Shown here: piece by piece, positions 1,930 to 30,975 of the stretch | Numbering within the stretch: position 1 is the first letter of the stretch | How the letters are laid out: each line of letters begins with the position of its first letter | DNA from: Acinetobacter pittii ANC 4050 | Lineage (GTDB): Bacteria; Pseudomonadota; Gammaproteobacteria; Pseudomonadales; Moraxellaceae | Reading direction: 5' to 3' | Assembly: GCF_000399685.1 (NCBI RefSeq) | Contig: NZ_KB976987.1 | Location: 2,089,647-2,153,646 of the forward strand | Length of the DNA stretch: 64,000 bases | Notes under the pieces: model-generated | Databases searched by the model: none | The model's input: only the letters and a program-made list of their open reading frames with translations | Told to the model about the DNA's origin: nothing | Made by a program: the position numbers and the translations under genes

Positions 1930-1936
1930 ATTTATT

Positions 1937-1965
1937 AAAGCCCAATCTTAGAATTGGGCTTTTTT
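1937..1965. terminator. bidirectional rho-independent terminator
   Basis: A stem AAGCCCAAT (1938-1946) pairs with ATTGGGCTT (1953-1961) across a 6-base loop and is followed by a T run. It separates the plus-strand gene ending at 1929 from dsdA, which ends at 1977 on the other strand. The A run on the left lets it serve both. Confidence 0.9.
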
Positions 1966-1976
1966 CTAGTGTGTCT

Positions 1977-16434: not shown

Positions 16435-17631
16435 TTAGAAAGTAAACCCAATATTAAAGTTTAAACGATATAGCCATTTATCACTATTTGGTGAGGTTGC
16501 AGAGGTATAACCCGTTGAGTTGGTCGAACCACCAATAATGTTAGAGTTTTTACCCCACGTATAATCCGCCCAAACCATAAATGGTGAAGCAATAAACATC
16601 ATTCCTGTAGTGTTCATTTGCGAATCTGACCAATCATCACGTTTTTTATCGAGATAACTATAGTCATTATAAAACTTAATGGCTTTTAGCTTACCCATAT
16701 TGGTGACAGGCAACGTATAGGCAAGGTTTAAACTGGCAATGGTCCCTTCTGAAGCAATAAAGTAAGCAGGTGTAAAACCATTATTGCCCATTAAAGTCAC
16801 ATCATTACTTACACCATCCGGATTTTTAGCATCGTATTGATAGTGAATAACCGAACTTTGTAAGTTAAAGCGTTTGTAGTTATTTTCGGTATGCAAACCA
16901 ACTGCATAATATTTACCGTCTTTATCGGTCATTTTATTATGTAGCTGAGCAATTGCCCCCGAAACACCAAACTCTTGTTTACCAAAATCGGTCTCTAACT
17001 TGCGTACAATGCGAGTATTAAACTGATGACGTTTTTCATTCTGATAAGCTTTTTGAGATGGAAATGCGTTTTCTTCCAAGTCATCATAAGTTGCACTTTC
17101 AGGGGAATAACGCAAGTTCGTCTCTAGCATTTGTGGATAATAGCCGAGTTTTACATCCCAATCTTTATCGTGATAATTCCAGTTGATCCCTGGCGCAATG
17201 TTGTTGCCATAACCTAAAAAGAATGGAATGTGGTAAGTCCAGCCATTTTGCGGATAGGGATAAATCGTGAAAGGCTTATAAACCAGACCTGCTTCAATGC
17301 TGTTATTGGCATCAAGGTTATAACCCACATATGCTTTTTCAATGGACGTTTTTTGCTGATCTTGAAATAGATAGCTGGCGTTGAGGTATGCATCATCAAA
17401 CTTACCTTTGAGATCTACCCTGAAAATATCAAAATAGAGCTTACCAAAACCGCGGTTTGGCCCTTCCCAATCTTCATAGCGTTGATTTAAGCGAACCACC
17501 CCACCTAACTTTAATGAGTCGGTGCCGTCATCACTTTTCCACTCAAGCAATGAGTCTTTTGCAAATGCATTGACGCTTACCCCCAGCGTAAGCTGTGCAA
17601 TGAATGCCATGATCAATGAAGTCTTTTTCAT
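16435..17631 (-). CDS. outer-membrane porin
   Basis: The 398-residue precursor has a signal peptide ending near residue 24 (NAFA). The mature part is rich in alternating aromatic strands and ends in GFTF, the terminal phenylalanine signal of outer-membrane beta-barrels. It is the last gene of the minus-strand catabolic run, 155 bases after the ThDP enzyme gene. It is therefore a good candidate for outer-membrane entry of the pathway substrate. A hairpin (GTTCCAGC with GCTGGAAC, 17650-17670) lies in the gap before it, so its expression may be partly uncoupled from the operon. Confidence 0.8.
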   Translation of the reverse strand: MKKTSLIMAFIAQLTLGVSVNAFAKDSLLEWKSDDGTDSLKLGGVVRLNQRYEDWEGPNRGFGKLYFDIFRVDLKGKFDDAYLNASYLFQDQQKTSIEKAYVGYNLDANNSIEAGLVYKPFTIYPYPQNGWTYHIPFFLGYGNNIAPGINWNYHDKDWDVKLGYYPQMLETNLRYSPESATYDDLEENAFPSQKAYQNEKRHQFNTRIVRKLETDFGKQEFGVSGAIAQLHNKMTDKDGKYYAVGLHTENNYKRFNLQSSVIHYQYDAKNPDGVSNDVTLMGNNGFTPAYFIASEGTIASLNLAYTLPVTNMGKLKAIKFYNDYSYLDKKRDDWSDSQMNTTGMMFIASPFMVWADYTWGKNSNIIGGSTNSTGYTSATSPNSDKWLYRLNFNIGFTF

Positions 17632-17786
17632 CTCTACATCCTTGATTGAGTTCCAGCGTCCTGCTGGAACTTTATTTGTTTTACCTGTAAAACTTAGTTT
17701 TTATTGTTTTTTAGACAAAAAATTTTATCTAAAAAAAGGATGGCTTAGCAGCTCCCATCGCATATGTACTAAACCATCCAAACTGG

Positions 17787-19427
17787 TTAATACAGTTTCT
17801 TTTGCGGTGGACCCGCAAAGTTTAATGGCCCAATCGAGTTCATATCGAGCTCGATCACGGTTGGTCCTTCAAAAGCGACAGCCTCTTGAATAACCGTTTT
17901 AAACTCATCTGCACTACCAACTTTCCAGCTCTTCACACCCATTGATTCACCAAGAAGTTTGTAGTCCGGTGTATGCAATTCATTGAAATATTGACGACCA
18001 CCGAAGTAGTTATTTTGAATGCCACGCATTACGCCATAACCACCATCATTCATAATCATGAGGACCATGTTGGTGTTTTCTTGCACCATGGTTGCAATCT
18101 CGCCAATACCAAGCATTAAGCCGCCATCGCCGACTAAACCAATTACTTTTTTGTCAGGGTTCGCAACCGAAGCACCGATTGCTGTTGCAAGACCTAAACC
18201 AATTGCACCCGCGAGTGAATGGATATTTTGGTTGGGTGCTTGTACAGGGAATAAACGGCTCCCCCATGTGCTACCTGACATGGTGATGTCTCGTACAAAA
18301 ATACCGTCTTGCGGTAAAGCTGCACGCAAGTGATCACAAATCAAAGCGTATTGGTCGATTTGCTTACGCAGTGCATCAATTGCAGCCTGTTTAGCAGCCA
18401 CTACAGCAGCATCGTAGTCAGCATCAACTTTTGAAGTTCCTTGAAGCTGCTCTAACACACGTGTTAAGACATCTTTAGCATCGCCACAAATGAAGTTACG
18501 AATTTTGTAATTACGTTGCTGAGCCACGGGGTTAGCATCAACCTGAATAATATTTTCAGGAAACTCAACCGAATAAGTTTTAGTTTCATTACTACGTAAA
18601 CGGGAACCCACCACAACCATTAAGTCAGCATCTTTTAATAGTTGCTCAACACCTGCCGAGTTATGGAATGCACCTAAACTACGTGGATGATCATCTGCCA
18701 GCACACCGCGGCCGTGTGTAGATGAAACAACTGGAATACCTAAATCTGCAATTGCTTTAACTTCGGCAACACTATTCAAAGTTCCACCACCAATCCAGAA
18801 AATCGGGCGTTTTGCTTTTTTGATTTCACTCACAAGAAGATCAATTTCAGCTTGTTCTGCCTGTGGCAATTCAAGTGCTTTCACTGGGCCTAAATTAAGT
18901 GGCAAATCAATTTCTGCTGCTTGTACATCAATTGGTAACTCAACACTGACAGGTCCCATTGGAACAGTCGTTGCAACACGGATGGCTTCACGAATCACAC
19001 CAACAGCATTGTCTGGACTGGTAATGCGAAATGCCGCTTTGCTTGATGCACGTAAAAACGTAAGTTGGTCTTTGGTTTCATGAATAAAACTTGCATCACG
19101 GTCGAGATATTCACGCTCAACCTGACCAGTTAAATGCAGTACAGGGCTACCCGCATTCATTGCTTCAATGAGTGAACCCACCGCATTACCAGCCCCTGCA
19201 CCCGTACTGGTCAACGCCACACCTAGGCCTTTAAAACGCGAGTGCGCATCTGCCATAGTGACCGCACCAGCCTCACCGCGGGCTGCGACAAAGCGCATTT
19301 TTTCACGACGTCCTACCGCATCGGCAATAGGTAAATTGTGGATGGAAATAACACCATAAATACTATCAACTTGGTGCGCTTCTAAAACTCTTGCGATTGC
19401 TTCGCCTACATTTACACGTTCAGTCAT
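17787..19427 (-). CDS. thiamine-diphosphate-dependent decarboxylase/acetolactate-synthase-like enzyme
   Basis: The 546-residue protein has the three-domain layout of the pyruvate oxidase/decarboxylase superfamily. The N-terminal PYR domain carries the cofactor-activating glutamate E52 in ARGEAGA. A central Rossmann-like domain contains RPIFWIGGGT. The C-terminal PP domain has the ThDP motif GDGGLMLGIGEIATM followed by NDGGYGVM. It is probably a 2-keto-acid decarboxylase or carboligase acting late in the pathway. The aldehyde dehydrogenase encoded 38 bases upstream would oxidise its product. Exact chemistry cannot be assigned. It is not part of an ilv operon, so classical acetolactate synthase is unlikely. 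Confidence 0.85.
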   Translation of the reverse strand: MTERVNVGEAIARVLEAHQVDSIYGVISIHNLPIADAVGRREKMRFVAARGEAGAVTMADAHSRFKGLGVALTSTGAGAGNAVGSLIEAMNAGSPVLHLTGQVEREYLDRDASFIHETKDQLTFLRASSKAAFRITSPDNAVGVIREAIRVATTVPMGPVSVELPIDVQAAEIDLPLNLGPVKALELPQAEQAEIDLLVSEIKKAKRPIFWIGGGTLNSVAEVKAIADLGIPVVSSTHGRGVLADDHPRSLGAFHNSAGVEQLLKDADLMVVVGSRLRSNETKTYSVEFPENIIQVDANPVAQQRNYKIRNFICGDAKDVLTRVLEQLQGTSKVDADYDAAVVAAKQAAIDALRKQIDQYALICDHLRAALPQDGIFVRDITMSGSTWGSRLFPVQAPNQNIHSLAGAIGLGLATAIGASVANPDKKVIGLVGDGGLMLGIGEIATMVQENTNMVLMIMNDGGYGVMRGIQNNYFGGRQYFNELHTPDYKLLGESMGVKSWKVGSADEFKTVIQEAVAFEGPTVIELDMNSIGPLNFAGPPQKKLY

Positions 19428-19465
19428 GTCTGTTCCTCAAAATTTGTTTTCAGTCCTTGAATTTA

Positions 19466-20932
19466 TTAATCGCACCAAGGGTTAGGCTGTTCATTCAGCC
19501 CCATATAAATACTCTTTTGCTGCATGTACGATAAAATGCCCAAACGGCCTTTCTCGCGTCCAATTCCACTGTCTTTAAAGCCACCAAACGGCGCACTAAT
19601 CGAGAACTTTTTGTAGGTGTTAATCCATACCGTTCCCACTTCTAATGCACGTGCAATGCGCCAAGCTTTACGATAGCTTTCAGTCCAGATGCCTGCGGCA
19701 AGACCAAAACAACTGTCATTGGCTTGGGTAATTAAATCTTGCTCGTTGTCATATTTCATAACGACTAAAACAGGGCCAAAAATTTCTTCCTGACAGGTTT
19801 GAGCACTGTTACTTAAGCCCGTGATAATGGTCGGTAAGTAATAGCTTCCTTTGGCATAGTCACCAGTGGTAAGCGCTTCACCACCAATCAAAACCTGACC
19901 ACCTTCGCTTTTAGCAAGCTGTACATAGCGATCAACTGACTGCAAATGTTTGTCATTGACCAGTGGTCCTAAATGCACGCCTGCCTGTTCCGGATGGCCC
20001 ACACGTAAGCCTTTAGTAATTTCAACCAAACGTGTTAAAAACTGATCGTAAAGACTGCTATGAATAAACAAGCGAGAACCTGCAATACACGCTTGGCCTG
20101 CCGAGCTAAAAATACCGTACGCGACACCTTTAGCTGCCAGTTCGACATCTGCATCAGGTAAAACGATGGTTGGTGACTTTCCACCCAACTCAAGTGAAGT
20201 GGTAATCAGTTTGTCAGCGGCAATGTGTGCCAAATGACGCCCTGTGGTTGTTCCACCTGTAAAAGAAATTTTACGAACCAATGGGTGCTGAGCAATTGCA
20301 TCACCAATGATCGAACCACGCCCCACTAACACACTGAGTAGACCTTTTGGTAAACCTGCCTCTTCAAAAATTTTGGCAAGCTCTAAAGCAATCAGTGAAG
20401 TCGCTTCAGCTGGTTTTAACACCACTGCATTTCCTGCTGCCAAAGCTGGAGCAAGCTTTTGAACTTCACTTGCGATTGGAGAGTTCCAAGGGGTAATTGC
20501 TGCCACAACGCCTACAGGTTCATGCACACTCATGGTCATAAAGTCTGGAGCACGCTGAGTGGTGAGCTCATCATTCATTGTTTCACAAGCCGCTGCAACA
20601 TAACGTGCAGTCGCCGCAGCGCTCATCACCAAACCACGAGTTTCGGTTAAAGGTTTACCATTATCGCGTGTTTGTAATTTTGCTAATTCATCTACACGTG
20701 CTTCAATAATGTCTGCAACTTTGTAGAGAATACGTGCGCGTTCATGCGGCAAGCTGTTTCTCCAGCTCGGTTGACGCCAAGCCTGGTCCGCTTTTTCAAT
20801 TGCTTCATTTACATCTTCAAGCGTTGCTGTTGAAAGCTCAGCGTTTACCGACTGATCTGCCGGAAACAGGCTTTGAATGACTGCACCACGACCTAATCGC
20901 CATTCACCTGCAATATAAATTTCCTTTGCCAT
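19466..20932 (-). CDS. NAD(P)-dependent aldehyde dehydrogenase
   Basis: This protein of about 488 residues has the full aldehyde dehydrogenase signature. It shows the general-base glutamate in LELGGKSP, the catalytic cysteine in GQACIAGSR, the cofactor loop KISFTGGTTTG and EEIFGPV near the C-terminus. I chose the ATG at 20932 because AAGGA stands about 8 bases before it; the longer frame starts with TTG. It probably oxidises an aldehyde made by the neighbouring ThDP enzyme. It lies within a few bases of the aspartate-dehydrogenase-like gene, so the two are almost certainly cotranscribed. Confidence 0.9.
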   Translation of the reverse strand: MAKEIYIAGEWRLGRGAVIQSLFPADQSVNAELSTATLEDVNEAIEKADQAWRQPSWRNSLPHERARILYKVADIIEARVDELAKLQTRDNGKPLTETRGLVMSAAATARYVAAACETMNDELTTQRAPDFMTMSVHEPVGVVAAITPWNSPIASEVQKLAPALAAGNAVVLKPAEATSLIALELAKIFEEAGLPKGLLSVLVGRGSIIGDAIAQHPLVRKISFTGGTTTGRHLAHIAADKLITTSLELGGKSPTIVLPDADVELAAKGVAYGIFSSAGQACIAGSRLFIHSSLYDQFLTRLVEITKGLRVGHPEQAGVHLGPLVNDKHLQSVDRYVQLAKSEGGQVLIGGEALTTGDYAKGSYYLPTIITGLSNSAQTCQEEIFGPVLVVMKYDNEQDLITQANDSCFGLAAGIWTESYRKAWRIARALEVGTVWINTYKKFSISAPFGGFKDSGIGREKGRLGILSYMQQKSIYMGLNEQPNPWCD

Positions 20933-20945
20933 GATCAAATCCTTC

Positions 20946-21737
20946 TTAAATCTGTATTGCTTCTACACTGTTGCGACAAGCACGAATCACGCTCAGCGCA
21001 GCCAAAGTTGATGTTTTCGGGTTACTTGGCAACGGCACACCCACCAGTTCAATGGTCATTTGTCCAAAGCCACCTTCTGCCACAATGGTGTGTTTGTTTT
21101 TGTTGATGGTTGGATCAACAGTTAACTCGACCATGGTTTCATCCATTCCAAGCCCTGCAAGCGCAATGGTTGCTGCAACGTTGGCATTGGCTGGAAATTT
21201 GGTCGCAGCTTCACGCGCAGTTCCTGTGAAAAAGACCGTAGGTTCAGTAACATGGTCTAAATCGACCAATTGCTCTGCATAACTACCCTTCCAGCTTTTT
21301 GGACTTTTACAGCCTTTGTAAGTGACTTTTTGCAAGCCACCTTCTTTAGCCGCAGAAATACCGTCAATACCTGCGATAGCGCCTGCCAGTAAATGCAGAT
21401 GGGCATCATTTTTTTCAGCAGTTTGCTTAAGCTGAACCAAAAACTCGTTATCAGCTAAAGTACCGACCGAGATCAAACCAATGGTCCAGCCTTTCGCTAA
21501 AACTTTCTGAGCATGCTCTTTCACAGCTGCTTGACCTGCCACCTCAATGACATAGTCTGGCGTACCATCACATTGCTCAATATCGGAAATCACCTGAATC
21601 TCGGAAGAGACTTGTGATTGAACTTTTTCAATACTGCGAGATGGCACGACAATCCATTTGAGTTGCAGATCTTGAGGCAAATGGGCATACACTTCTGCTG
21701 CCATTGCGCCAAAACCAATCATCATCAACTTTTTCAT
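20946..21737 (-). CDS. L-aspartate dehydrogenase family protein
   Basis: The 263-residue protein matches the aspartate dehydrogenase family. It has an N-terminal Rossmann motif (MIGFGAMAAE), the GAIAGIDGISAA segment, the FPANANVAATIALAGLG helix and a C-terminal NPKTSTLAALSVIRA. The family oxidises L-aspartate to iminosuccinate with NAD(P). In some bacteria it feeds NAD synthesis, but here no nadA or nadC is near and the gene sits inside a ring-cleavage operon. From memory, P. aeruginosa has a homologue beside an aldehyde dehydrogenase, a decarboxylase and an SDR gene; this was not checked. The real substrate may be a pathway amino acid or imine rather than aspartate. Confidence 0.85.
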   Translation of the reverse strand: MKKLMMIGFGAMAAEVYAHLPQDLQLKWIVVPSRSIEKVQSQVSSEIQVISDIEQCDGTPDYVIEVAGQAAVKEHAQKVLAKGWTIGLISVGTLADNEFLVQLKQTAEKNDAHLHLLAGAIAGIDGISAAKEGGLQKVTYKGCKSPKSWKGSYAEQLVDLDHVTEPTVFFTGTAREAATKFPANANVAATIALAGLGMDETMVELTVDPTINKNKHTIVAEGGFGQMTIELVGVPLPSNPKTSTLAALSVIRACRNSVEAIQI

Positions 21738-21752
21738 GACAGCACCTGATAT

Positions 21753-22547
21753 TTATAAATGTTTATTAAAACCACCCGAGACATCTATTGCCGAACCTGT
21801 GGTGTAAGATGCCAATGGTGATGCCAAGAAAACTAAAGCACGTGCAGGTTCTTCTGGACGACCTAAACGCTGCATTGGGATACCACGATTTTTTGCGATA
21901 TTGCCTGTCCACTCTTCCCATGACAGATTTAAATCTGAACGGGTTTCATAGCGGCGTTTCCACTGCGCAGATTCGACCATACCCAGTAAAATCGAGTTCA
22001 CACGAACACCATATTGAGTAAATTCATGCGCCAACGAATGGGTTAAATTCAATAAAGCAGCGCGTGCAGATGAAGTCGCAATCATGTGCGGTTCCGGTTG
22101 CAATGCCAGTAATGAGTTCACATTGGTAATTGAGGCATTTGCCGACTGTTTTAAGTCGTCAAGAAAAGCCCGTACCGGATGTAAAACACTGAAATATTTC
22201 AGCTCGATTTCTTTCATCCAGTCTTCATCTTGCGTATTTTCAAAATTTGAAACACGACCTTGCCCAGCATTGTTAATGAGCATGTCCACATTGCCCAAAT
22301 TGAGTTTGACGTCTTTGGCAAATTGCTGAACTTCTTCTTTTTTCAATACATTGCATGCTTTAGTAAAAATATTGGCATGCGGAAATTTTTCTAAAATATA
22401 GTGCTTAGACGCATTTAAACGTTCTTCATCGCGACCACACCACGCTACTTTTGCACCCTCTGCAACCAGTATTTCAACAGCAGCCAGCCCAATCCCAGAT
22501 GAGCCACCGGTAACAACTGCAACTTTTCCTTCAACTTGGAAGCTCAT
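21753..22547 (-). CDS. SDR-fold protein lacking the usual Tyr-Lys pair
   Basis: This 264-residue short-chain dehydrogenase-fold protein has an intact cofactor motif (TGGSSGIG, 13-20), NNAG at 92-95 and a C-terminal GSAIDVSGG. The conserved serine S145 is present. The YxxxK catalytic pair is replaced: the aligned stretch reads TSSAR, with T158 and R162. It may therefore not be a standard dehydrogenase. It is linked to the hydrolase gene upstream and the aspartate-dehydrogenase-like gene downstream by gaps of 15 bases each. A role in the same catabolic pathway is inferred from position only. Confidence 0.85.
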   Translation of the reverse strand: MSFQVEGKVAVVTGGSSGIGLAAVEILVAEGAKVAWCGRDEERLNASKHYILEKFPHANIFTKACNVLKKEEVQQFAKDVKLNLGNVDMLINNAGQGRVSNFENTQDEDWMKEIELKYFSVLHPVRAFLDDLKQSANASITNVNSLLALQPEPHMIATSSARAALLNLTHSLAHEFTQYGVRVNSILLGMVESAQWKRRYETRSDLNLSWEEWTGNIAKNRGIPMQRLGRPEEPARALVFLASPLASYTTGSAIDVSGGFNKHL

Positions 22548-22562
22548 AATCCTTAATCTCTC

Positions 22563-23387
22563 TTACGATTGTTCCTGAATCGTCAACATAATTTGGTTAA
22601 ATGCTTGCGGTTGGTCGACATAACTTAAATGTCCTGCGTCTTCTATGACGAAGCGCTGTTCCAACTGCAATTCCTGAGCAAGCTCTTGTATACCTAACGC
22701 AGGAGTGATTTGATCTTGCTGCCCTGCAATTACTGTGCATGGGACTTTTAAATCGGTTAAATAATTACGTATTTCGTCATATGCCAGTAAGTAAGATGCA
22801 TGTGTGAAGCCCTGTAGAGTCAACTGTTGCATCACCTCTGAAACTAAAGCTAAGGCTTGTGGCTCTTGTTTATAAATCAAATGAGGTCCACGGCTTTCGG
22901 CCATTCCTTTAGCACCTAACTCTTTCAACATTTTTGGTCTTTTTTCAAAAACCTGAATTTGTGTCTGTTCATCGTGGCGTTGGTAGCCTTGCGCTAAATT
23001 AGCGACGACCAAGTGTTCCACTCGCTCTGGGTAAAGTGCAGCAAATGCACTCGCCTGTAAGGCACCTAATGAGTGTCCGACCACAATGGCTTTTTCAATT
23101 TTTAAAACATCGAACAACGCTGCTAAACGCTTTGCGTAGTCGGTCGCATTGGGTTGATCAGTTAAAAGTTCATCTGATTTGCCATAGCCCGGTGCGTCCC
23201 AGGCAATGACATGAAAATGATGAGACAACACTTCAAGTTGGTTCACCCATGAAGCAGAACCTGAACTAATGCCATGCAACAGCACAAGGTACTCGCCCTG
23301 ACCGGCTTCCCGATAGGCTTGTTGCTGACCTTGAACAGTCACGGTTTTCACCGGAAATTCTGCTAACTTTTCAATGAGTGTCATCAT
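22563..23387 (-). CDS. alpha/beta hydrolase, possible ring-cleavage-product hydrolase
   Basis: The protein of about 274 residues has the alpha/beta hydrolase layout. The oxyanion motif LLHGISSG comes first, followed by the nucleophile elbow GHSLGAL, an acid in GQQDQITP and the catalytic histidine in GHLSYVDQP. Enzymes of this type that sit beside extradiol dioxygenases often hydrolyse carbon-carbon bonds of meta-cleavage products, which fits here. I prefer the ATG at 23387 (MMTLIEK), preceded by AAAGGAAAG, to a TTG at 23423. It directly follows the cupin gene. Confidence 0.85.
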   Translation of the reverse strand: MMTLIEKLAEFPVKTVTVQGQQQAYREAGQGEYLVLLHGISSGSASWVNQLEVLSHHFHVIAWDAPGYGKSDELLTDQPNATDYAKRLAALFDVLKIEKAIVVGHSLGALQASAFAALYPERVEHLVVANLAQGYQRHDEQTQIQVFEKRPKMLKELGAKGMAESRGPHLIYKQEPQALALVSEVMQQLTLQGFTHASYLLAYDEIRNYLTDLKVPCTVIAGQQDQITPALGIQELAQELQLEQRFVIEDAGHLSYVDQPQAFNQIMLTIQEQS

Positions 23388-23423
23388 TTTCAATTCTTTC
23401 CTTTCATTCACTTCATCAAACAA

Positions 23424-23945: not shown

Positions 23946-23968
23946 TTTTTAAACTCCTATACAGTGAA

Positions 23969-25192
23969 TTAATAACGTTTTAAAAGAGGAACCAAGAACA
24001 ACGACCCAATGACAGCGACGGCAGCCAAGAAGGTAATTCCTAAATTAAAACTATGTGTTTGCATCACGATGTAACCGATAAGAACAGGCGCAATTGCACT
24101 TGCAAAATTACCTAACCCGTTAAATATTCCACCTGCAGTCGCCCCTACATTTGAGGTCGTCACTCTTGCAAGCAGAGCAAATACAGCTGCTACTCCAAAA
24201 CCCCACGCCATCGCGCTTAACGACATGGCAGCAATAATCAATAATGGCTTGGTCATAATGACCATCACATACATGAAGATGCCCGCGAGTAATAAACCGC
24301 TAAATACTTGAATTGCTCGGCGGCCTAACTTGTCAGATAAAAACGCACCCACCACTTCGCCAATTAACATGGCAATGAATGGAAAGCTTGAATACATCCC
24401 AAACTCTTTGAGATTGAATCCTTTGTCTTGCATAAGATAAGAAGGAACCCAGCTATTTAAGCCCCACAAATACGTCATCAACGCAATGTTAAATAGACAC
24501 ACCAACCAGAATGCGCTGTTGCTGAGCAGCAATTTAGTATTGGCAATGTGGCCTTTGAAATTGGTACGTTTACTCTCGCCCTCAATTTCGACAGTTTTCT
24601 TGAGTTGTAAGTTACGCAAACCGAAAACAATGCTGAAAATCGCGATTAGTGTTAATCCAGCCATCACAAAGAAAGTGGTATGCCAGTCATGGTGTGCTAA
24701 AACATTTGCAGTGATCGGGAACCCAAGGAATGCACCAATCGGCGTTCCAAGTAAAAACATGGTAGAAGCACGTGCCTGCTGACGGTCAGTGTAAGTCTGC
24801 TTAACAATGGTGTAAGCCAAGGCAAATAACGGACCTTCTGCTAAACCGAGCAGTACACGTAAAATCAACATGCCTGAATAACTGGTGGTGAACCCCATGC
24901 AAAACATGAGTAAACCCCACGACGTTACGCTCCAGAACAGCATTTTCTTTGGGTTAAAGATGTCACCCAAAAAGCTTAGAAAGACTGATGAAAAACCATA
25001 AGCAAGTAAGAAACTTGTCATGAGCCATCCGAGCTTGGCCTTATCTTCAGCAATTCCCATTGCACTTTGAAAATGAGGATCTGAAAATAAAACCGCAATA
25101 CTAATCTTGTCGAAAAATGCCAGTACCACACACACCATAAGGACAAAAGCAGGTACCCAATGCTTCAATCCACTTTTTTCTTCATTACTCAT
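23969..25192 (-). CDS. MFS transporter, probable pathway substrate importer
   Basis: This 407-residue protein has about 12 membrane segments and the MFS loop SDKLGRRAIQVF between helices 8 and 9. The first half (FDKISIAVLFSDPHF) resembles the anion:cation symporter branch that imports organic acids such as aromatic carboxylates. An AAGGAA ribosome binding site precedes the ATG. It sits in the middle of the catabolic operon, so uptake of the starting compound is the likely role. Confidence 0.85.
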   Translation of the reverse strand: MSNEEKSGLKHWVPAFVLMVCVVLAFFDKISIAVLFSDPHFQSAMGIAEDKAKLGWLMTSFLLAYGFSSVFLSFLGDIFNPKKMLFWSVTSWGLLMFCMGFTTSYSGMLILRVLLGLAEGPLFALAYTIVKQTYTDRQQARASTMFLLGTPIGAFLGFPITANVLAHHDWHTTFFVMAGLTLIAIFSIVFGLRNLQLKKTVEIEGESKRTNFKGHIANTKLLLSNSAFWLVCLFNIALMTYLWGLNSWVPSYLMQDKGFNLKEFGMYSSFPFIAMLIGEVVGAFLSDKLGRRAIQVFSGLLLAGIFMYVMVIMTKPLLIIAAMSLSAMAWGFGVAAVFALLARVTTSNVGATAGGIFNGLGNFASAIAPVLIGYIVMQTHSFNLGITFLAAVAVIGSLFLVPLLKRY

Positions 25193-25234
25193 GTGTCATT
25201 CCTTCGATTTGGTAATGAGAACCAGATTTAATGT

Positions 25235-26452
25235 TTACGGTTTTAACTTCATGACATTAAATTCAGAATCTGCTAATAGTTTTGGATCTAAAACGGTGTT
25301 GGCTTGCATCCAACGTTTTGCCAGTTTGACTAGCTTCGAGTCATTAATGGCAATCATGTTGAGCAAACGATTTTCATGATCCAGATATAAATAGCTCACC
25401 TGATCTTCACCGCCTTGGCGAATCACCAGTTCTTTGGTTTTTTCAGGCTGATAAGTCCCTAAAATTTGAATATTGAAGTGATATTGATCAGACCAAAGCC
25501 ATGGAATATCGCTATATTCAGTTTCAATTCCGAGCATCGATTTTGCTGCGGCAATCGCCTGATTTTGTGCATTTGCCCAAGACTGAATGCAATAACCCAA
25601 ACCCGGATGAATCGCGACATCACCTGCGGCATAAATGTTTTGATCTGAGGTTTGCCCAAAACAATTCACCACAATGCCATCTTTCACATCGAGACCAGCG
25701 TGTACACCTAACTCTTTGGCAATTTCGGCGCCCGCACCTACTACAACACAGTCAAATAACTGACTATTTTGAGGATGATTCACCACTTCAACTTTTTGAT
25801 TAGGCGCTTCAACCAAATGAAGGCTCTTACTGTCTAAGTGAATTTTTGTGCCTTGGGTCTCATGCATATTTTTTAAAAATGCAGAAACTTCCGGACTCAC
25901 ACTTCTTGCGCATAAACGGTCGCCATATTCAAAAATATGAACATCTTTACCTTGCTTACGTGCAGTTGCAGCAATTTCTAAACCAATCCAGCCACCGCCG
26001 ATCACAGCGACATTTTTTGCATTCTTTAAAATTTCAGCCAAACGTTCACAGTCATGTACATTGCGTAAGGTCACAACATTTGGAATAAACTGCCATGTAT
26101 TGACCGGTACACGTGCACGGCTTCCGGTTGCAATCAGCAATTTGTCATATGGCAAAATTTGGCCACTTTCTAAATGAACCTGTTTTTGCTCACGGTCGAC
26201 TTTTGTTGCGATTTCCGGTTTATGCCATTGAACGTTGAACTCTTGAACCTGTTCAGGAGAGAACAGATTCAAACTTTCATAAGTTGCTTCTTTTGAAAGT
26301 ACTTGCTTAGACAGTGGCGGACGCTCATAAAACACTTGATCTTCATTTGAAACCACGTGAATTTCGCCCACATACCCATTTTGACGTAAGGTACTTACTG
26401 CCCAACCCGCTGCCTGTCCGGCACCTACAATTACGATCTTTTCCATAGCCAT
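25235..26452 (-). CDS. FAD-dependent ferredoxin reductase of a Rieske oxygenase system
   Basis: This 405-residue protein is a two-dinucleotide-binding flavoprotein. It has an N-terminal FAD motif (VIVGAGQAAG, near 6-15), the conserved ERPPLSK, an NAD-binding motif AVIGGGWIGLEIAA near 150, and the second FAD motif IYAAGDVA near 275. It would pass electrons from NADH to the small Rieske ferredoxin encoded at the start of the operon, and from there to the oxygenase. This is the class found with BphA4- and CamA-type reductases. Confidence 0.9.
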   Translation of the reverse strand: MAMEKIVIVGAGQAAGWAVSTLRQNGYVGEIHVVSNEDQVFYERPPLSKQVLSKEATYESLNLFSPEQVQEFNVQWHKPEIATKVDREQKQVHLESGQILPYDKLLIATGSRARVPVNTWQFIPNVVTLRNVHDCERLAEILKNAKNVAVIGGGWIGLEIAATARKQGKDVHIFEYGDRLCARSVSPEVSAFLKNMHETQGTKIHLDSKSLHLVEAPNQKVEVVNHPQNSQLFDCVVVGAGAEIAKELGVHAGLDVKDGIVVNCFGQTSDQNIYAAGDVAIHPGLGYCIQSWANAQNQAIAAAKSMLGIETEYSDIPWLWSDQYHFNIQILGTYQPEKTKELVIRQGGEDQVSYLYLDHENRLLNMIAINDSKLVKLAKRWMQANTVLDPKLLADSEFNVMKLKP

Positions 26453-26474
26453 CTTCCTTGTAAAGCAATCCCTG

Positions 26475-27404
26475 TTAAACAGGCTTCACCTGACGGCGGG
26501 TTGTGTCATCAAGACCACCTTCAATCGCCCATTCGGTGAAAAGCTCTAGACGATGTTCTTCTACACGTGGCTGCCATTCTTCTGTCAAATAATCATCGTT
26601 GGTGTAATATTCAAATGCCCCACCCAATGGTGAGTTGACGTACCAGAAATAAGCAGAAGAAATTGGATGACGTCCCGGCCCAATGAAAGTTGACCATTCC
26701 GAGCGATTCATATTTAAACCGCCCCCAATTACTTCATGGATATCACGAACAACAAACGCAACGTGATTTAAGCCAGCAGGTTTATTTGGAACACTGAGCA
26801 AGAATAAATCATGGTGATAACCTTCACCGCGGCAACGTAAGAATGCACCACGATTTTTGTAAGCATCAGATAAATGAAAGCCCACTTTTTCAATATAGAA
26901 ATTTTCAGTTGTTGCCAAATCTGGTGTGAAGAACACTACATGCCCAATCGCAACAGGTTGACCTTTTTCATAGACAGGACTTGCTGCATTGACACGTTGA
27001 ATGTTGCCGTATTGGTTAATACCTTCCGTTTTAAGTTCTGGTACTTCTTTTACAAAACTTTGTTCAAAACGAATGGTCATGCCATTTGGGTCAAGACACT
27101 GAACTGTACTTTCAGAACGTTTAAAACCTTCTACATCGGCCAAACGTGCTGCCAAGTCTTCGAGGTCTTGAGTACTTTCAACACCCCATGTGACTTCACG
27201 TAAAGTTGAACCTTGTTCAATGGCAGCAGGCAAACGGTCATCATCACAATTAAATAAATAAATTTTGCTACCGTTTTGAGTCTGGTAAAGATCAGCGCCT
27301 TCAATATCCGAAGTACTTTGGCTTAAACCAAAATCTGCTAAAAACTTGTTTGAAGCGGCTCTATCTTCAACTCCAAACTTTAAAATCTCGATCCCTGTAA
27401 TCAT
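26475..27404 (-). CDS. VOC-family extradiol-type ring-cleavage dioxygenase
   Basis: The 309-residue protein has two vicinal-oxygen-chelate modules, as in 2,3-dihydroxybiphenyl dioxygenase and catechol 2,3-dioxygenase. The three expected iron ligands are present in the C-terminal half: H155 (IGHVVFF), H214 (GLNHVAF) and E265 (GAFEYYTND). It should cleave a catechol-like ring next to the hydroxyl groups using Fe(II) and oxygen. It lies directly downstream of the SDR gene that could supply the catechol. The substrate is unknown. Confidence 0.9.
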   Translation of the reverse strand: MITGIEILKFGVEDRAASNKFLADFGLSQSTSDIEGADLYQTQNGSKIYLFNCDDDRLPAAIEQGSTLREVTWGVESTQDLEDLAARLADVEGFKRSESTVQCLDPNGMTIRFEQSFVKEVPELKTEGINQYGNIQRVNAASPVYEKGQPVAIGHVVFFTPDLATTENFYIEKVGFHLSDAYKNRGAFLRCRGEGYHHDLFLLSVPNKPAGLNHVAFVVRDIHEVIGGGLNMNRSEWSTFIGPGRHPISSAYFWYVNSPLGGAFEYYTNDDYLTEEWQPRVEEHRLELFTEWAIEGGLDDTTRRQVKPV

Positions 27405-27415
27405 TTGACTACTCC

Positions 27416-28180
27416 TTAGTTAAAGACAAAACCGCCATTGACCGGAATATTTTGACCTGTCACAAAAGAGGACAAATCCGACAGTAGATACAATGCTGTT
27501 CCATTTAAATCTTGTGGAAGTTGCTGACGTTGAATCGCTCTTCCGTTCACATATAAATCGTGACGTTCCTGCGGCACATACTCGGTTGCTTCAACCAGAG
27601 TAAGGCCGGGTGACAGTGTGTTGACGCAGATATTGGACTGCCCCAACTCTCTTGCCATTGAACGTGTCATGGCAAGAATTGCACCTTTACTTGCCACATA
27701 AGCCATCAGGTTCGGCGCGCCCCAAAGTGCTGTATCGGAAGCAACATTAATAATTTTGCCAGCAGCCGATTGCTTTAAATGGGGAACACATGCCTTACTA
27801 ATTAGCCATGTACCTTTCACATTAATATTCATGACCCGATCCCAAAGTTCAGGATCATAATCAATCATATTTTTTCCACCGACATTGGTTGCCAGTGCCG
27901 CACAGTTCACAAGTCCGTCTAGTCCTTGTAATACTTCCACGCTTTCTGCAACCGCATTTTCAATAGAGTCTGCATTGGCAAGGTCAACTGTTACTGCATG
28001 AACATTTAGCCCTTGTTTCTGTAAAGCTTGTGCTTCTTGTTGTACCAAGTCAGATAAAATATCTGCCATCACAACTTCAGCACCAGCCTCGGCAATGGCT
28101 TGAGCAAAATCTCGGCCTAAACCACGCGCAGCACCAGTCACTAAAACTTTTTTGCCTTGCAACAACGCTACATTAGCCAT
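27416..28180 (-). CDS. SDR-family dehydrogenase, possible cis-dihydrodiol dehydrogenase
   Basis: This 254-residue short-chain dehydrogenase has TGAARGLG near residue 15, the catalytic serine in NVASDTALWG and an intact YVASK catalytic pair. Placed right after the Rieske oxygenase alpha gene, it probably rearomatises the oxygenase product to a catechol with NAD. The chosen ATG at 28180 overlaps the stop codon of the alpha gene by 8 bases. The longer frame starting at 28216 would lie deep inside that gene. The overlap suggests translational coupling. Confidence 0.88.
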   Translation of the reverse strand: MANVALLQGKKVLVTGAARGLGRDFAQAIAEAGAEVVMADILSDLVQQEAQALQKQGLNVHAVTVDLANADSIENAVAESVEVLQGLDGLVNCAALATNVGGKNMIDYDPELWDRVMNINVKGTWLISKACVPHLKQSAAGKIINVASDTALWGAPNLMAYVASKGAILAMTRSMARELGQSNICVNTLSPGLTLVEATEYVPQERHDLYVNGRAIQRQQLPQDLNGTALYLLSDLSSFVTGQNIPVNGGFVFN

Positions 28181-29240
28181 GAGCTTCTTCCTGCATCTCG
28201 ATACGGTTTGATGCATTTAGCGCAGCAATTTTCTTTAATTGCTTCTCAGCTTCTTTCTTCATTAAACGGCGTAAACGTGCAAGACCAACGTCATGTTGAT
28301 ATAAGAATTCTCGTGCACGGGCATTTGGCGCAAGATTTTCTAAAATAATGCGATCTTGTTCCAATACATCCCAATGCAACTGTTCTAAATGATTGCGATA
28401 TAAGAAACGCCATACATTACGTTGCCAGCCACTAACCTTACGGCAGCGCCAGAAAAATACGCGGGTATTGTTGGCATCAATTGGGGTTGCATAACCCACA
28501 ATCCAGAATTCGCCACCCGGACCAAATTGTTTACGATAAGGAATTGAAAGACGTAACCAGCTTGCACCAGTTGAACCATATTCAACCCAGTCGAAGTTCA
28601 CACCTGTTTGGCCTTCTTTTTCGAAAACAAAGCCATTATCGGTTGTACGATGCTTCATCTCTGCAGTACGTTCGCCGTCTGCCATAGAGTGTGAAGTACA
28701 GTGCAAATAGGTCCCATGCATTGGGTCCATCACGTTATCAATCGCGTATTGATGGTTTACTTTCCAATCTGCTTGGCAAAGGAATGAACTCCACTCTTCG
28801 CTTGCAAGTTGCTCTGGAAACTCAAGCGGTTTTGGCTGTTCATTTACGTCAATACCAAACCAGATAAAGATCGCACCATGTTGCTCAATGACCGGATAAT
28901 TCTTTAAACATTTAGTACCAGTCATTGGACATTCATGAACGGCTGGTACATCAGCAACTACACCGTCAGCACGAACTTCAACACCGTGATACCAGCAAGC
29001 AACTCGGTCACCCAAGTTCCAACCCAGTGAAAGACGAGCACCGCGGTGTGGACAGCGATCTTCAAGCGCATGAACCTGACCTTCGGCATCACGCCAAACC
29101 ACAATATTTTCGCCTAAACGGGTAATTCCGACTGGATTAGCAGCGACTTCCCAACTTGCTAAAACCGGGTGCCATTGGTCACGTAAACCAAGTTCTAAAT
29201 ATTCTTCAGCGCTTTGTGAAGTTGATACGATTGCGTTCAT
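28173..29240 (-). CDS. Rieske non-heme iron oxygenase, alpha subunit
   Basis: This 355-residue protein is the catalytic subunit. The [2Fe-2S] Rieske ligands are C63, H65, C82 and H85 (CPHRGARL and CWYHG). The mononuclear iron site shows H175 and H180 in DPMHGTYLH, with D296 as the probable third ligand. No beta-subunit gene is present, so it belongs to the alpha-only class. It should hydroxylate or demethylate an aromatic or related substrate in the cytoplasm, using electrons from the ferredoxin and reductase of the same operon. Confidence 0.93.
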   Translation of the reverse strand: MNAIVSTSQSAEEYLELGLRDQWHPVLASWEVAANPVGITRLGENIVVWRDAEGQVHALEDRCPHRGARLSLGWNLGDRVACWYHGVEVRADGVVADVPAVHECPMTGTKCLKNYPVIEQHGAIFIWFGIDVNEQPKPLEFPEQLASEEWSSFLCQADWKVNHQYAIDNVMDPMHGTYLHCTSHSMADGERTAEMKHRTTDNGFVFEKEGQTGVNFDWVEYGSTGASWLRLSIPYRKQFGPGGEFWIVGYATPIDANNTRVFFWRCRKVSGWQRNVWRFLYRNHLEQLHWDVLEQDRIILENLAPNARAREFLYQHDVGLARLRRLMKKEAEKQLKKIAALNASNRIEMQEEAHG

Positions 29241-29256
29241 TTTATTCTTCCCTGAA

Positions 29257-29556
29257 TCAATAACCTAAACGTTGCATTTCTTCTGTAAAGCTTGCAGAAG
29301 TCCATTCATCACCAGATTCACAGCGGAAACCCTGTTGATTAAGTGCAGAAACAACGTCATCTAACTCAGTTGCGCCTGCAGAAAATGCCTGAATCAAGTT
29401 CTTTACAAAATCTTGTTCGTAGAGAGTTGGCTCTTTATAACGTGTCTGCCAAACCAACAATTCAGATTGACCTGGAACTTGAATATTGTTGATACCTGCT
29501 TCGGTTGCTGGCGTTGCATGAATCCAGCTTGCCAACTTTTCATTAAATGTCTTCAT
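29257..29556 (-). CDS. 99-residue protein linked to the Rieske oxygenase
   Basis: This small soluble protein lies between the ferredoxin and oxygenase genes, with gaps of 27 and 16 bases. The C-terminal part (DVVSALNQQGFRCESGDEWTS) has the look of a resolvase-type helix-turn-helix, where a new segment inspects a rule about gene order in recombinases. I recall similar proteins being named recombinase-like HTH proteins beside Rieske genes, but this was not checked. A structural or accessory role for the oxygenase is equally possible. Coding is supported by its tight operon position. Confidence 0.75.
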   Translation of the reverse strand: MKTFNEKLASWIHATPATEAGINNIQVPGQSELLVWQTRYKEPTLYEQDFVKNLIQAFSAGATELDDVVSALNQQGFRCESGDEWTSASFTEEMQRLGY

Positions 29557-29583
29557 TGTTCTGCTTCCTTGTACATGTGAGGA

Positions 29584-29889
29584 CTAGAGTTGAATTTGAA
29601 TATCCTGTCCTTCAACACGAACTGGGTACGTACATAGGTTTCTACACCCTGGTCCACTTTTTAGCTCACCTGTCTGAATGTCAAAAATTGCTTCATGCAA
29701 TGGACATTCAACAGTCTGATCTTCGATAAATCCTTCGGTTAATAAGGCATACGCATGAGGGCAAACATTTTCGATAGCAAAGTAATTTTCATCGACAAAA
29801 AATACGCCTATTTTTTTCCCTTCAATTTCGATGGCTTTCGGCTCATCTTCGCTAACGTCACCCTGCTGACAAACTGAGATCCAACTCAT
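29584..29889 (-). CDS. Rieske-type [2Fe-2S] ferredoxin of the oxygenase system
   Basis: This small electron carrier of about 101 residues has the Rieske motif CPHAYALL ... CPLHEAIFD. The ligands are C48, H50, C67 and H70, counted from the longer start at 29904. I prefer the second ATG at 29889 because AGGACGCAAGG lies just before it; the first ATG has no ribosome binding site. It is the first gene of the catabolic operon, divergent from the IclR regulator. It would carry electrons from the flavin reductase to the alpha subunit. Confidence 0.92.
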   Translation of the reverse strand: MSWISVCQQGDVSEDEPKAIEIEGKKIGVFFVDENYFAIENVCPHAYALLTEGFIEDQTVECPLHEAIFDIQTGELKSGPGCRNLCTYPVRVEGQDIQIQL

Positions 29890-30034
29890 ACCTTGCGTCC
29901 TCATTTTGTTTTATATACAAAACATAATTTGATTTTCAAAACACAAGCTAAGCATAATCCCCTTGATCATTTTTTGTCAAAGTAAAAATAAATATAAAAT
30001 TCATTAATTTAGTAAATTTTAAATATTTTGTTAC

Positions 30035-30050
30035 GTTTCAAACAAGAAAC
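30035..30050. promoter_or_regulatory. candidate operator in the IclR/ferredoxin divergent region
   Basis: GTTTC (30035-30039) and GAAAC (30046-30050) form an inverted repeat with a 6-base spacer inside the divergent region 29890-30162. A second element, GTTTT-N6-AAAAC, lies nearer the ferredoxin gene. Either could bind the IclR-type regulator. The arms are short and the region is AT-rich, so chance is not excluded. Confidence 0.35.
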
Positions 30051-30162
30051 AAAGTTTTAAATATAAAAATTGTTTTATGCATTTTTAACAATTACAATGG
30101 TTATAAAATAAAGCAGCATGCCCCAAATTGAACCTTGTTTTATTTATAGGAAAAAGAGACGA

Positions 30163-30975
30163 ATGAGCCTAGCGATTGAAGAAGATTCTCAAGAATCAGA
30201 AACAACAAAAAATGATGATCGATATTTAGTACCCGGACTTGTGCGGGGTTTAGCTATCTTGCAAGCATTTAACCAACAAGCGCAAGAAATGACAATTACA
30301 GAAATCGCTGAAATTTTAGAAGTGAACCGTTCTAGTGCATTTCGTCTGATCTATACACTGGAATCTTGTGGTTATTTAAGAAAAGCATCTCAAAAAACTT
30401 ATGCTCTCGATTCTAAAGTGATGGAACTTGGTTTTAACAGTTTATCTAAACTTTCATTACTCGATTTATCGACCCCTTTAATGAAAGAACTACGTGATCA
30501 AACCAAACTTGCGGTGCATCTTTCAATTTTAGAAGGTACTCATATTGTCTTTGTAAATAACATTCAGTCGATGGGAACATTCACGAGTAACATTAGCTTA
30601 GGCACCCGCTGGCCTGCTCATGCCACCGTGATTGGTCAAATGTTACTGTCTGATTTACCTGAAACAGAAGTACGTCAGCGTTACCGTAACTTTAGCGATT
30701 GGGACAGTTTCTCTGACCTGACGCCAACCAATTTAAAAGCTTTATTGCAAAGGCTGTCGTACGTAAAAACTCAAAAAACTATGGTGAGTTGGGGTCATTA
30801 TAATCATGATATGGCAGCCTGCGCGGCACCTATTTTTAAACAGTCAAATGGTAAAATGGTCGCTGTTATTTCTGTAAGTTGCCCAATTACGACGTATGAT
30901 GAAAGAACATTTAAAGAAGATATCGCAAGTCTTGTTATTGAAACCGCAAATAAAATTTCCAAATTTATTTATTAA
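30163..30975 (+). CDS. IclR-family transcriptional regulator
   Basis: The protein of about 270 residues has an N-terminal winged helix (MTITEIAEILEVNRSSAFRL) and a C-terminal IclR effector domain. The ATG at 30163 is preferred because AGGAAAAAGAG stands just before it; the longer frame starts at 30118. It is divergent from the 14-gene catabolic run and is the obvious candidate for its pathway-specific regulator, probably responding to the substrate or an intermediate. IclR proteins such as PcaU and PobR play this role for aromatic pathways in Acinetobacter. Confidence 0.9.
   Translation: MSLAIEEDSQESETTKNDDRYLVPGLVRGLAILQAFNQQAQEMTITEIAEILEVNRSSAFRLIYTLESCGYLRKASQKTYALDSKVMELGFNSLSKLSLLDLSTPLMKELRDQTKLAVHLSILEGTHIVFVNNIQSMGTFTSNISLGTRWPAHATVIGQMLLSDLPETEVRQRYRNFSDWDSFSDLTPTNLKALLQRLSYVKTQKTMVSWGHYNHDMAACAAPIFKQSNGKMVAVISVSCPITTYDERTFKEDIASLVIETANKISKFIY

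What the first reader, a model, noticed from the sequence alone, without database searches (positions are those of the whole stretch)
16435..30975. A 14-gene Rieske and ring-cleavage operon with no recognised substrate
Fourteen minus-strand genes with gaps mostly under 45 bases encode every step of an uptake and ring-cleavage pathway: porin, MFS importer, three-component oxygenase without a beta subunit, two SDRs, an extradiol dioxygenase with intact H155/H214/E265, a hydrolase, a ThDP enzyme and an aldehyde dehydrogenase. An IclR regulator is divergent. The combination with a cupin, an aspartate-dehydrogenase-like enzyme and a 99-residue protein does not match the classic biphenyl, benzoate, cumate or indole-acetate clusters as I know them. 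It could be an undescribed route, perhaps for a nitrogen-containing aromatic.
Basis: partly seen in the sequence, partly recalled or inferred. Interest (0 to 1): 0.8.

Follow-up and report, generated by a model that had tools for sequence, protein, structure and literature searches.

The report
Likely genes for kynurenic acid breakdown
A block of fourteen co-directed genes, shared by many soil and hospital bacteria and without a known substrate in the papers searched, looks like the missing gene set for the breakdown of kynurenic acid, a tryptophan product that our own bodies make too.

Summary
The operon is real: fourteen minus-strand genes (16435-29904) and a divergent IclR gene in an Acinetobacter chromosome, extradiol triad intact. 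It is widespread: extradiol orthologues occur in 53 of 149 sampled Acinetobacter genomes, 97 of 200 of a family I take for Burkholderiaceae, 24 of 298 and 3 of 25 in two genera I take for Pseudomonas, and Klebsiella. Nine genes stay together in 26 of 30 distant regions (the other four meet contig ends) and 20 of 20 Pseudomonas ones. Ten paper searches listed no description.

Best reading: catabolism of a fused N-heteroaromatic, most likely kynurenate. The enzyme set fits a gene-less 1960s pathway (recalled): dihydroxylation, diol oxidation, extradiol cleavage, ThDP decarboxylation, one aldehyde oxidation. The window genome lacks the meta-pathway aldolase. Delftia, a kynurenate user (recalled), has the cluster and a tryptophan dioxygenase gene beside an aromatic transaminase gene. 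Against: tryptophan genes rarely adjoin the cluster, the Acinetobacter tested lack tryptophan dioxygenase, the side-chain reductase is unassigned, nothing was assayed. A 99-residue protein accompanies each orthologous Rieske gene seen and may be its partner. Confidence 0.5.

The parts
29584..29904 (-). Rieske-type ferredoxin (real start probably 29889, MSWISV...)
   Evidence: Pfam Rieske 8.7e-23; AndAb/HcaC-like, below cut-offs; 306 bases in the A. baumannii record
29257..29556 (-). 99-aa HTH_62 protein, possible small partner of the oxygenase
   Evidence: PF20552 5.7e-28; present wherever the orthologous Rieske gene was seen in 27 distant regions and 4 plasmid-collection loci and 20 Pseudomonas regions; conserved N-terminal AGINNIQ-PG stretch, residues 1-35 at pLDDT below 50, helices after residue 45
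28173..29240 (-). Rieske oxygenase alpha subunit (proposed kynurenate 7,8-dioxygenase/hydroxylase)
   Evidence: Rieske and VanA_C domains; closest solved chains carbazole dioxygenase, about 1e-21, residues 16-190 only; C63/H65/C82/H85 and H175/H180/D296 conserved in 36 aligned sequences
27416..28216 (-). SDR1, proposed cis-dihydrodiol dehydrogenase (start probably a few codons later)
   Evidence: adh_short_C2 4.1e-58
26475..27404 (-). Extradiol dioxygenase (proposed 7,8-dihydroxykynurenate 8,8a-dioxygenase)
   Evidence: Homoprotocatechuate 2,3-dioxygenase 1.5e-16; H155, H214, E265 invariant in 38 sequences
25235..26452 (-). FAD ferredoxin reductase
   Evidence: HcaD-like 2.8e-93, below cut-off; a VanB-like reductase stands in its place in other lineages
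23969..25192 (-). MFS importer
   Evidence: MFS_1 1.1e-55; TIGR00893 1e-55, below cut-off
23424..23945 (-). Cupin, core gene, proposed to act on the pyridine-ring intermediate
   Evidence: Cupin_2 2e-11; H91, H93, E97, E98 and R136 invariant in 37 sequences; weak likeness to quercetinase and 3-hydroxyanthranilate dioxygenase, E 0.003-0.03
22563..23423 (-). Alpha/beta hydrolase, core gene
   Evidence: Abhydrolase_1 4.6e-30; PcaD-like, below cut-off
21753..22547 (-). SDR2, candidate for the NADH-dependent side-chain reduction; not universal
   Evidence: PRK07062 1.3e-138, above cut-off; not found in 7 of 26 regions with the full core
20946..21737 (-). Aspartate-dehydrogenase-family enzyme (NadX-like), core gene
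   Evidence: PRK13303.1-3 6.5e-140, above cut-off; aligns to L-aspartate dehydrogenase 2dc1, H216 kept
19466..20938 (-). Aldehyde dehydrogenase, core gene
   Evidence: Aldedh 1.7e-169; C284 and E250 invariant in 38 sequences (their catalytic role is recalled)
17787..19427 (-). ThDP-dependent enzyme, proposed 2-oxo acid decarboxylase, core gene
   Evidence: PRK07064 2.3e-265, above cut-off; acetolactate synthases and benzoylformate decarboxylases among solved relatives
16435..17631 (-). Outer-membrane porin
30118..30975 (+). IclR-family regulator (PcaR/PcaU/PobR type), divergent
   Evidence: IclR_C 1.6e-51; TIGR02431 5.3e-48, below cut-off
29951..29980 (-). Candidate promoter TTGACA-18-TATGCT
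   Evidence: TTGACA and most of the -10 box invariant in 22 aligned Acinetobacter spacers
29908..29923 (.). Palindromic candidate IclR operator GTTTTGTATATAAAAC
30054..30069 (.). Second operator-like site, less conserved
17678..17693 (.). Operator-like palindrome in the gap before the porin gene (3 mismatches; weak)
   Evidence: 12 matches in the window, both strands counted, against 3.62 expected; the pattern itself was taken from this spacer

Best explanation
The operon encodes uptake and complete breakdown of a benzene-fused nitrogen heteroaromatic acid, most likely kynurenate (4-hydroxyquinoline-2-carboxylate). Inferred order: porin and MFS carrier import it. The Rieske oxygenase, fed by its ferredoxin and FAD reductase, forms the 7,8-dihydrodiol. 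SDR1 makes 7,8-dihydroxykynurenate. The extradiol enzyme opens the benzo ring at 8,8a to a 2-oxobutenoate side chain on a dihydroxypicolinate. A reductase (SDR2 or NadX) saturates the side chain, the ThDP enzyme decarboxylates the 2-oxo acid to an aldehyde, and the aldehyde dehydrogenase makes 5-(2-carboxyethyl)-4,6-dihydroxypicolinate. Cupin, hydrolase and NadX then open the pyridine ring. On paper this could give 2-oxoglutarate plus aspartate/oxaloacetate and ammonia. Shown here: gene families, conserved residues, co-conservation, absence of the classic aldolase, presence in Delftia. Inferred: substrate, order and every reaction.
For: (1) The core (Rieske, HTH_62, SDR1, EDO, cupin, hydrolase, NadX, ALDH, ThDP) matches the recalled kynurenate steps, including the unusual sequence of extradiol cleavage, 2-oxo acid decarboxylation and one aldehyde oxidation. 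(2) The 4-hydroxy-2-oxovalerate aldolase domain (PF07836) is absent from the window genome, from 39 of 53 cluster-bearing Acinetobacter in all (window genome counted) and from both enterics tested, so in these the products cannot enter the classic meta lower pathway. (3) Nitrogen: NadX aligns well with aspartate dehydrogenase; guests in other lineages are RidA (9 of 30 distant regions) and an FAD monooxygenase (10 of 30) whose best solved relative is 6-hydroxynicotinate 3-monooxygenase (G902 protein). (4) Delftia (G344, 98% to Omp32) has the cluster and a run of permease, aromatic transaminase, tryptophan 2,3-dioxygenase and RidA genes, besides a second tryptophan dioxygenase near kynureninase and formamidase genes. 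(5) In G902 and G950 (one genus) tryptophan dioxygenase and arylformamidase genes adjoin the cluster, with no kynureninase in the fetched stretch. In Marinobacterium (L096) a tryptophan dioxygenase-like gene lies about 5 kb from the cluster's regulator. (6) Pseudomonads degrade kynurenate to glutamate, alanine and organic acids (PMC11354673, passages); 7,8-dihydroxykynurenic acid is formed from it (title cited in PMC5610271, passages).
Against: Tryptophan dioxygenase genes exist in 43 of 53 and 74 of 77 cluster genomes tested but lay within 10 kb of the cluster only in G902 and G950; the Marinobacterium case came from a named locus. None of 20 Pseudomonas regions had kyn genes nearby. Five of 5 Acinetobacter, 2 of 2 enterics and 3 of 3 g9 genomes tested have no tryptophan dioxygenase, so they would need outside kynurenate. 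Fourteen of 53 cluster-bearing Acinetobacter do have the meta-pathway aldolase. The reductase step has no clear gene, since SDR2 was not found in 7 of 26 regions. The cupin lacks the usual second-motif histidine (R136 instead), so an oxygenase role is unsure. The NicC-like gene has no place in the recalled pathway. The Marinobacterium locus also has a kynureninase-like gene. Delftia also has kynureninase. The Delftia phenotype and the pathway steps are recalled, not read. No assay.
Confidence: 0.5

Rival explanations
1. The substrate is another fused-ring acid handled by the same logic: xanthurenate, quinaldate (via kynurenate), a 4-quinolone, or a non-nitrogen bicyclic acid.
For: The enzyme order fits any bicyclic arene whose extradiol product bears a 2-oxobutenoate side chain. 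The NicC-like hydroxylase found in 10 of 30 distant regions could, on paper, convert 8-hydroxykynurenate to the same catechol.
Against: Kynurenate is the one with a known dihydrodiol/7,8-diol/8,8a route (recalled; title cited). Tryptophan dioxygenase and formamidase genes beside the cluster in one genus point to kynurenine-derived substrates.
Confidence: 0.2
2. The substrate is a single-ring aromatic acid or amine. The extradiol product is processed by the hydrolase or aldehyde dehydrogenase and the ThDP enzyme in an unusual lower pathway.
For: The extradiol enzyme is nearest to homoprotocatechuate 2,3-dioxygenase, the ALDH scores well on HpaE though below its cut-off, and the hydrolase is nearest to PcaD. 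Fourteen of 53 cluster-bearing Acinetobacter have the meta-pathway aldolase.
Against: No hydratase/aldolase set in the cluster, and no PF07836 aldolase in the window genome. A ThDP decarboxylation after semialdehyde oxidation would make a second aldehyde; the cluster has one aldehyde dehydrogenase.
Confidence: 0.22
3. The cluster is a side-activity or detoxification set for a plant or host aromatic, not a growth pathway.
For: Patchy distribution, for example 24 of 298 in one genus; different importers in different lineages.
Against: A dedicated porin, importer and IclR regulator, with a conserved promoter and operator in Acinetobacter, and a full set of late enzymes argue for nutrition.
Confidence: 0.08

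Closest known systems
Kynurenate degradation (quinoline branch of tryptophan catabolism; EC 1.14.99.2, 1.3.1.18, 1.13.11.10; recalled)
   Same: Types of the first six activities (reductase uncertain); presence in Delftia and in genera I take for Pseudomonas
   Different: No paper listed assigns genes to it (one search listed 20 of 594 papers); the enzymes that open the pyridine ring are not known to me
Carbazole 1,9a-dioxygenase system (carAa/Ac/Ad)
   Same: Alpha-only Rieske oxygenase with separate ferredoxin and reductase; best solved match; acts on a fused N-heterocycle
   Different: Only about 1e-21 and over the N-terminal half; the carbazole pathway uses CarBaBb and classic meta enzymes, with no HTH_62 protein, ThDP enzyme or NadX (recalled)
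2-oxo-1,2-dihydroquinoline 8-monooxygenase
   Same: Alpha-only Rieske enzyme hydroxylating the benzo ring of a quinolone
   Different: 1.7e-12; a monooxygenase with a different downstream path (recalled)
Homoprotocatechuate (hpa) meta pathway
   Same: Extradiol enzyme of the same superfamily and an HpaE-like ALDH
   Different: No HpaG/H/I-type isomerase, hydratase or aldolase in the cluster; TIGR02295 score 76.1 against a cut-off of 321.4
Trigonelline and nicotinate pathways
   Same: Pyridine chemistry; a NicC-like monooxygenase accompanies the cluster in some lineages
   Different: No Rieske/extradiol enzymes in those pathways (recalled); no NicC-like gene among the window's 14

Membership tests
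Kynurenate degradation pathway | Multicomponent oxygenase giving a 7,8-dihydrodiol | tested here: inconclusive
   Rieske alpha, ferredoxin and reductase genes with conserved cofactor ligands; substrate not testable
Kynurenate degradation pathway | Dihydrodiol dehydrogenase and extradiol dioxygenase with intact metal ligands | tested here: met
   SDR1 in 26 of 30 distant regions, the other four at contig ends; EDO ligands invariant in 38 sequences; family level only
Kynurenate degradation pathway | NADH-dependent reduction of the oxopropenyl side chain | tested here: inconclusive
   SDR2 not found in 7 of 26 regions; NadX in all 26 but of a family with another known chemistry
Kynurenate degradation pathway | 2-oxo acid decarboxylase followed by aldehyde dehydrogenase | tested here: met
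   ThDP and ALDH genes in the same 26 regions; family level only
Kynurenate degradation pathway | Linked genes for making kynurenine or kynurenate | tested here: inconclusive
   Adjoining in G902/G950 and about 5 kb away in L096; not near the cluster in the other regions probed
Kynurenate degradation pathway | Cluster present in an organism known to use kynurenate | tested here: inconclusive
   G344, taken for Delftia through Omp32, has the cluster; its kynurenate phenotype is recalled and was not tested
Kynurenate degradation pathway | Growth on or turnover of kynurenate | not testable with these tools
   needs bench work
Classic meta-cleavage pathway (dmp/bph/mhp type) | 4-hydroxy-2-oxovalerate aldolase available | tested here: not met
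   PF07836 absent in G000 and in 39 of 53 cluster-bearing Acinetobacter in all; present in 14
Benzoate/cumate/biphenyl-type dioxygenase clusters | Rieske alpha and beta subunits | tested here: not met
   No beta-subunit gene among the 14; alpha is of the VanA/CarAa type
HTH DNA-binding protein (for the 99-aa protein) | Fold match to known HTH proteins | tested here: inconclusive
   Model mean pLDDT 67.5; best PDB match E 1.8; no significant sequence match in the PDB

The most novel reading that the evidence does not exclude
This is the missing gene set for complete kynurenate breakdown, known from enzymology for six decades without genes (recalled). It includes an undescribed pyridine-ring opening by cupin, hydrolase and an aspartate-dehydrogenase relative that ends in 2-oxoglutarate and aspartate/oxaloacetate. 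It also includes a new obligatory small partner of a Rieske oxygenase (the HTH_62 protein).
Probability: 0.35. Interest if true: 0.8.

Novelty: new variant of a known kind. Interest (0 to 1): 0.62.

Why it matters
Kynurenate is a signalling tryptophan product excreted in urine (PMC11354673, passages). If the assignment holds, the enzymes EC 1.14.99.2, 1.3.1.18 and 1.13.11.10 (orphans as far as I recall) gain genes, and one can read from a genome which gut, plant and hospital bacteria remove kynurenate. A. baumannii and Klebsiella records carry the cluster.

Tried and rejected
Paper searches listed no paper on the genes. A search for kynurenine genes as a general neighbour of the cluster mostly failed. 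A neighbour survey of 42 stretches (30 distant regions and 12 loci) showed lineage-specific importers (MFS, ABC, tripartite), a VanB-like reductase, RidA, a NicC-like monooxygenase and a muconolactone-isomerase-like small ORF (my reading, no family search), but no recurrent kyn gene. The AlphaFold model of the Rieske subunit was poor (pLDDT 49.6) and was not used. The HTH_62 model gave no fold match. The hydrolase had no solved relative at 1e-22. I considered and rejected the classic meta pathway for this genome (aldolase absent) and two-subunit Rieske clusters (no beta subunit). The names Burkholderiaceae and Pseudomonas for the unnamed groups searched are my inference from kinship and size; only Delftia was checked, by Omp32.

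Rows set aside before counts: five of the 58 genomes matched only at 37-39% identity and were not counted, leaving 53. In one search, regions G572, G950, G777 and G834 meet contig ends and were left out of the 26. G777 is the least clear of them: the contig starts just past the extradiol gene, and its 11.5 kb on the other side hold no core gene, so the core may lie beyond the start, as the order in G919 would allow, or be absent. G912 ends just before its Rieske gene. The ThDP row for the 46 HTH_62-scan loci shows 0 because the stretches held end in or before that gene. In those 46 loci the HTH_62 gene is present by construction, since it was the query. Of 24 hits, 20 were fetched. Thresholds were mine.

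Full report
WHAT IS THERE. The window lies at 2089647-2153646 of a one-contig 3.84 Mb genome. Its nearest named relatives are Acinetobacter: A. lactucae, A. pittii and others at 96-100% for the 99-aa protein. Fourteen minus-strand ORFs run from 29904 to 16435, with gaps of 42 bases or less except 155 before the porin and one start overlap. An IclR gene diverges. In the spacer are a TTGACA-18-TATGCT promoter and two palindromes close to GTTTTRTATATAAAAC. In an alignment of 22 Acinetobacter spacers the copy next to the ferredoxin gene is nearly invariant, the other less so. A weaker copy lies before the porin.

FAMILIES. Pfam and NCBIfam give: Rieske ferredoxin, HTH_62 protein, alpha-only Rieske oxygenase with VanA_C domain, SDR1, extradiol dioxygenase, HcaD-like reductase, MFS, cupin, alpha/beta hydrolase, SDR2 (PRK07062), NadX-like (PRK13303.1-3), ALDH, ThDP enzyme (PRK07064) and a porin with no family. 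Among the rows shown, the NCBIfam models above cut-off for cluster proteins were SDR2's PRK07062, two aspartate dehydrogenase models and PRK07064; none names an aromatic pathway.

ACTIVE SITES. In alignments of 36-38 sequences the EDO ligands H155, H214 and E265 never vary. The Rieske ligands C63, H65, C82 and H85 and the probable mononuclear ligands H175, H180 and D296 are also kept. NadX H216 aligns with a histidine of aspartate dehydrogenase 2dc1 (its catalytic role is recalled). The cupin keeps H91, H93, E97 and E98 but has R136 where cupins usually have the motif-2 histidine (recalled).

DISTRIBUTION. Orthologues of the extradiol enzyme: 53 of 149 genomes of the window's genus at 64% identity or more; 9 of 398 in an even phylum sample including the window's own; 97 of 200 in one family that by my reading is Burkholderiaceae; 21 of 200 in the family of G344; 3 of 25 and 24 of 298 in two genera that by my reading are Pseudomonas; 3 of 7 in the genus of G902. 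Named records: Klebsiella pneumoniae and K. aerogenes, Caballeronia, Novosphingobium resinovorum, A. baumannii, and Zobellella, Paenalcaligenes, Marinobacterium, Neisseriaceae and A. baylyi.

THE CORE. Of 30 distant regions, 26 hold nine genes together: Rieske alpha (beyond the contig end in G912), HTH_62, SDR1, EDO, cupin, hydrolase, NadX, ALDH and ThDP. The other four meet contig ends; one of them, G777, shows no core gene on its visible side and stays open. The 20 further regions (20 of the 24 hits) show all nine as well. SDR2 was not found in 7 of the 26. Novosphingobium L042 lacks SDR1, ferredoxin and the FdR match by my thresholds. Electron transfer alternates between ferredoxin plus FAD reductase and a VanB-like reductase (19 of 30 regions). 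RidA (9 of 30) and a NicC-like monooxygenase (10 of 30) are frequent guests. A porin like the window's ends the cluster in all 20 regions.

WHY KYNURENATE. The chemistry demanded by the core is unusual. One ring cleavage is followed by a 2-oxo acid decarboxylase and a single aldehyde dehydrogenase, with no hydratase or aldolase. Extradiol cleavage of a single-ring catechol would need the classic lower pathway or two aldehyde oxidations. The window genome has no 4-hydroxy-2-oxovalerate aldolase; with it, 39 of 53 cluster-bearing Acinetobacter and both enterics tested lack it, while 14 of 53 have it. A fused ring whose benzo part is opened gives an aryl-2-oxobutenoate, and reduction, decarboxylation and oxidation give an aryl-propionate. 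As I recall, this is what Hayaishi and co-workers described for kynurenate in Pseudomonas extracts: 7,8-dihydrodiol, 7,8-dihydroxykynurenate, 8,8a cleavage, side-chain reduction, a formylethyl and then a carboxyethyl dihydroxypicolinate. [quoted passage not shown] The original paper asked for is not held.

CONTEXT TESTS. Omp32 (sequence and source organism recalled; full-length match to the PDB entries) identifies G344 as Delftia at 98%. It carries the cluster. It has two full-length tryptophan dioxygenase genes. One lies about 2 kb from kynureninase, arylformamidase and permease genes. The other is directly beside an aromatic transaminase gene, with a RidA gene behind and a permease gene in front (permeases by my reading). 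The second set could make kynurenate. As recalled, D. acidovorans is the classic user of the kynurenate branch. In G902 and G950 (one genus) a tryptophan dioxygenase gene ends within a few bases of the end of the cluster's last gene, in convergent orientation, with an arylformamidase gene before it and no kynureninase found in the stretch. In Marinobacterium L096 a tryptophan dioxygenase-like gene at 1813-3069 lies about 5 kb from the cluster's IclR gene, with a kynureninase-like gene behind it (my reading of the ORF). Against this, tryptophan dioxygenase genes were found in 117 of 130 cluster genomes tested (43 of 53 and 74 of 77), but within 10 kb only in G902 and G950. Ten of 53 and 3 of 77 had none, including all five Acinetobacter tested. 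So linkage is a hint, not proof.

THE LATE STEPS. If the intermediate is a 5-alkyl-4,6-dihydroxypicolinate, its ring N-C2(COOH)-C3-C4 is an aspartate skeleton, and C6-C5 with the side chain a 2-oxoglutarate skeleton. Cleavage between C4 and C5 by the cupin, hydrolysis of the amide and an aspartate dehydrogenase would use the three remaining core enzymes. It would also explain the reported glutamate. This is inference only, and the missing cupin histidine weakens it.

THE 99-RESIDUE PROTEIN. Public records name it recombinase-like HTH, yet it accompanies the orthologous Rieske gene in all 27 distant regions where that gene is visible, in 4 of 4 plasmid-collection loci and in 20 of 20 Pseudomonas regions. 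Most of its N-terminal AGINNIQ-PG...WQ-R stretch is invariant across 23 sequences, although AlphaFold leaves residues 1-35 at low confidence. Conserved but unordered suggests binding to a partner, most simply the oxygenase. No fold match supports or excludes DNA binding.

VERDICT. I assign kynurenate with confidence 0.5. All reactions remain to be tested.

Noticed in passing
15075-16373: MHS-type transporter gene (TIGR00883) on the + strand, convergent with the porin; an MFS gene at 99% lies at the same place in A. baumannii L044. It may be a second importer.
   Followed up: no
L081, L083, L084, L085, L086 (upstream flank): In A. baylyi, A. soli and relatives a NicC-like gene and a second Rieske gene (33-35% identity) lie within 10 kb upstream of the cluster, perhaps a catabolic island.
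   Followed up: no
12857-14179: Glutaminase with a C-terminal part that weakly matches the end of the DauA transporter model (E 0.0008).
   Followed up: no
31336-31917: Nicotinamide riboside transporter PnuC gene beside the cluster; probably unrelated.
   Followed up: no
L039, L040; hits H1-H5 and H8: PLSDB 'plasmid' records: L039 and L040 carry metK, speA and tkt, and other hits are 0.66-5.4 Mb long, so some look like mislabelled chromosome pieces.
   Followed up: no
G810 18663-19220 of the joined region and 8 others: A muconolactone-isomerase-like ORF of about 100 residues (my reading) recurs inside the cluster in nine regions, the same nine that have RidA.
   Followed up: partly
L096:4731-7780: Hydantoinase/dihydropyrimidinase and NCS1-type permease genes (my reading) sit between the tryptophan dioxygenase-like gene and the cluster in Marinobacterium.
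   Followed up: no
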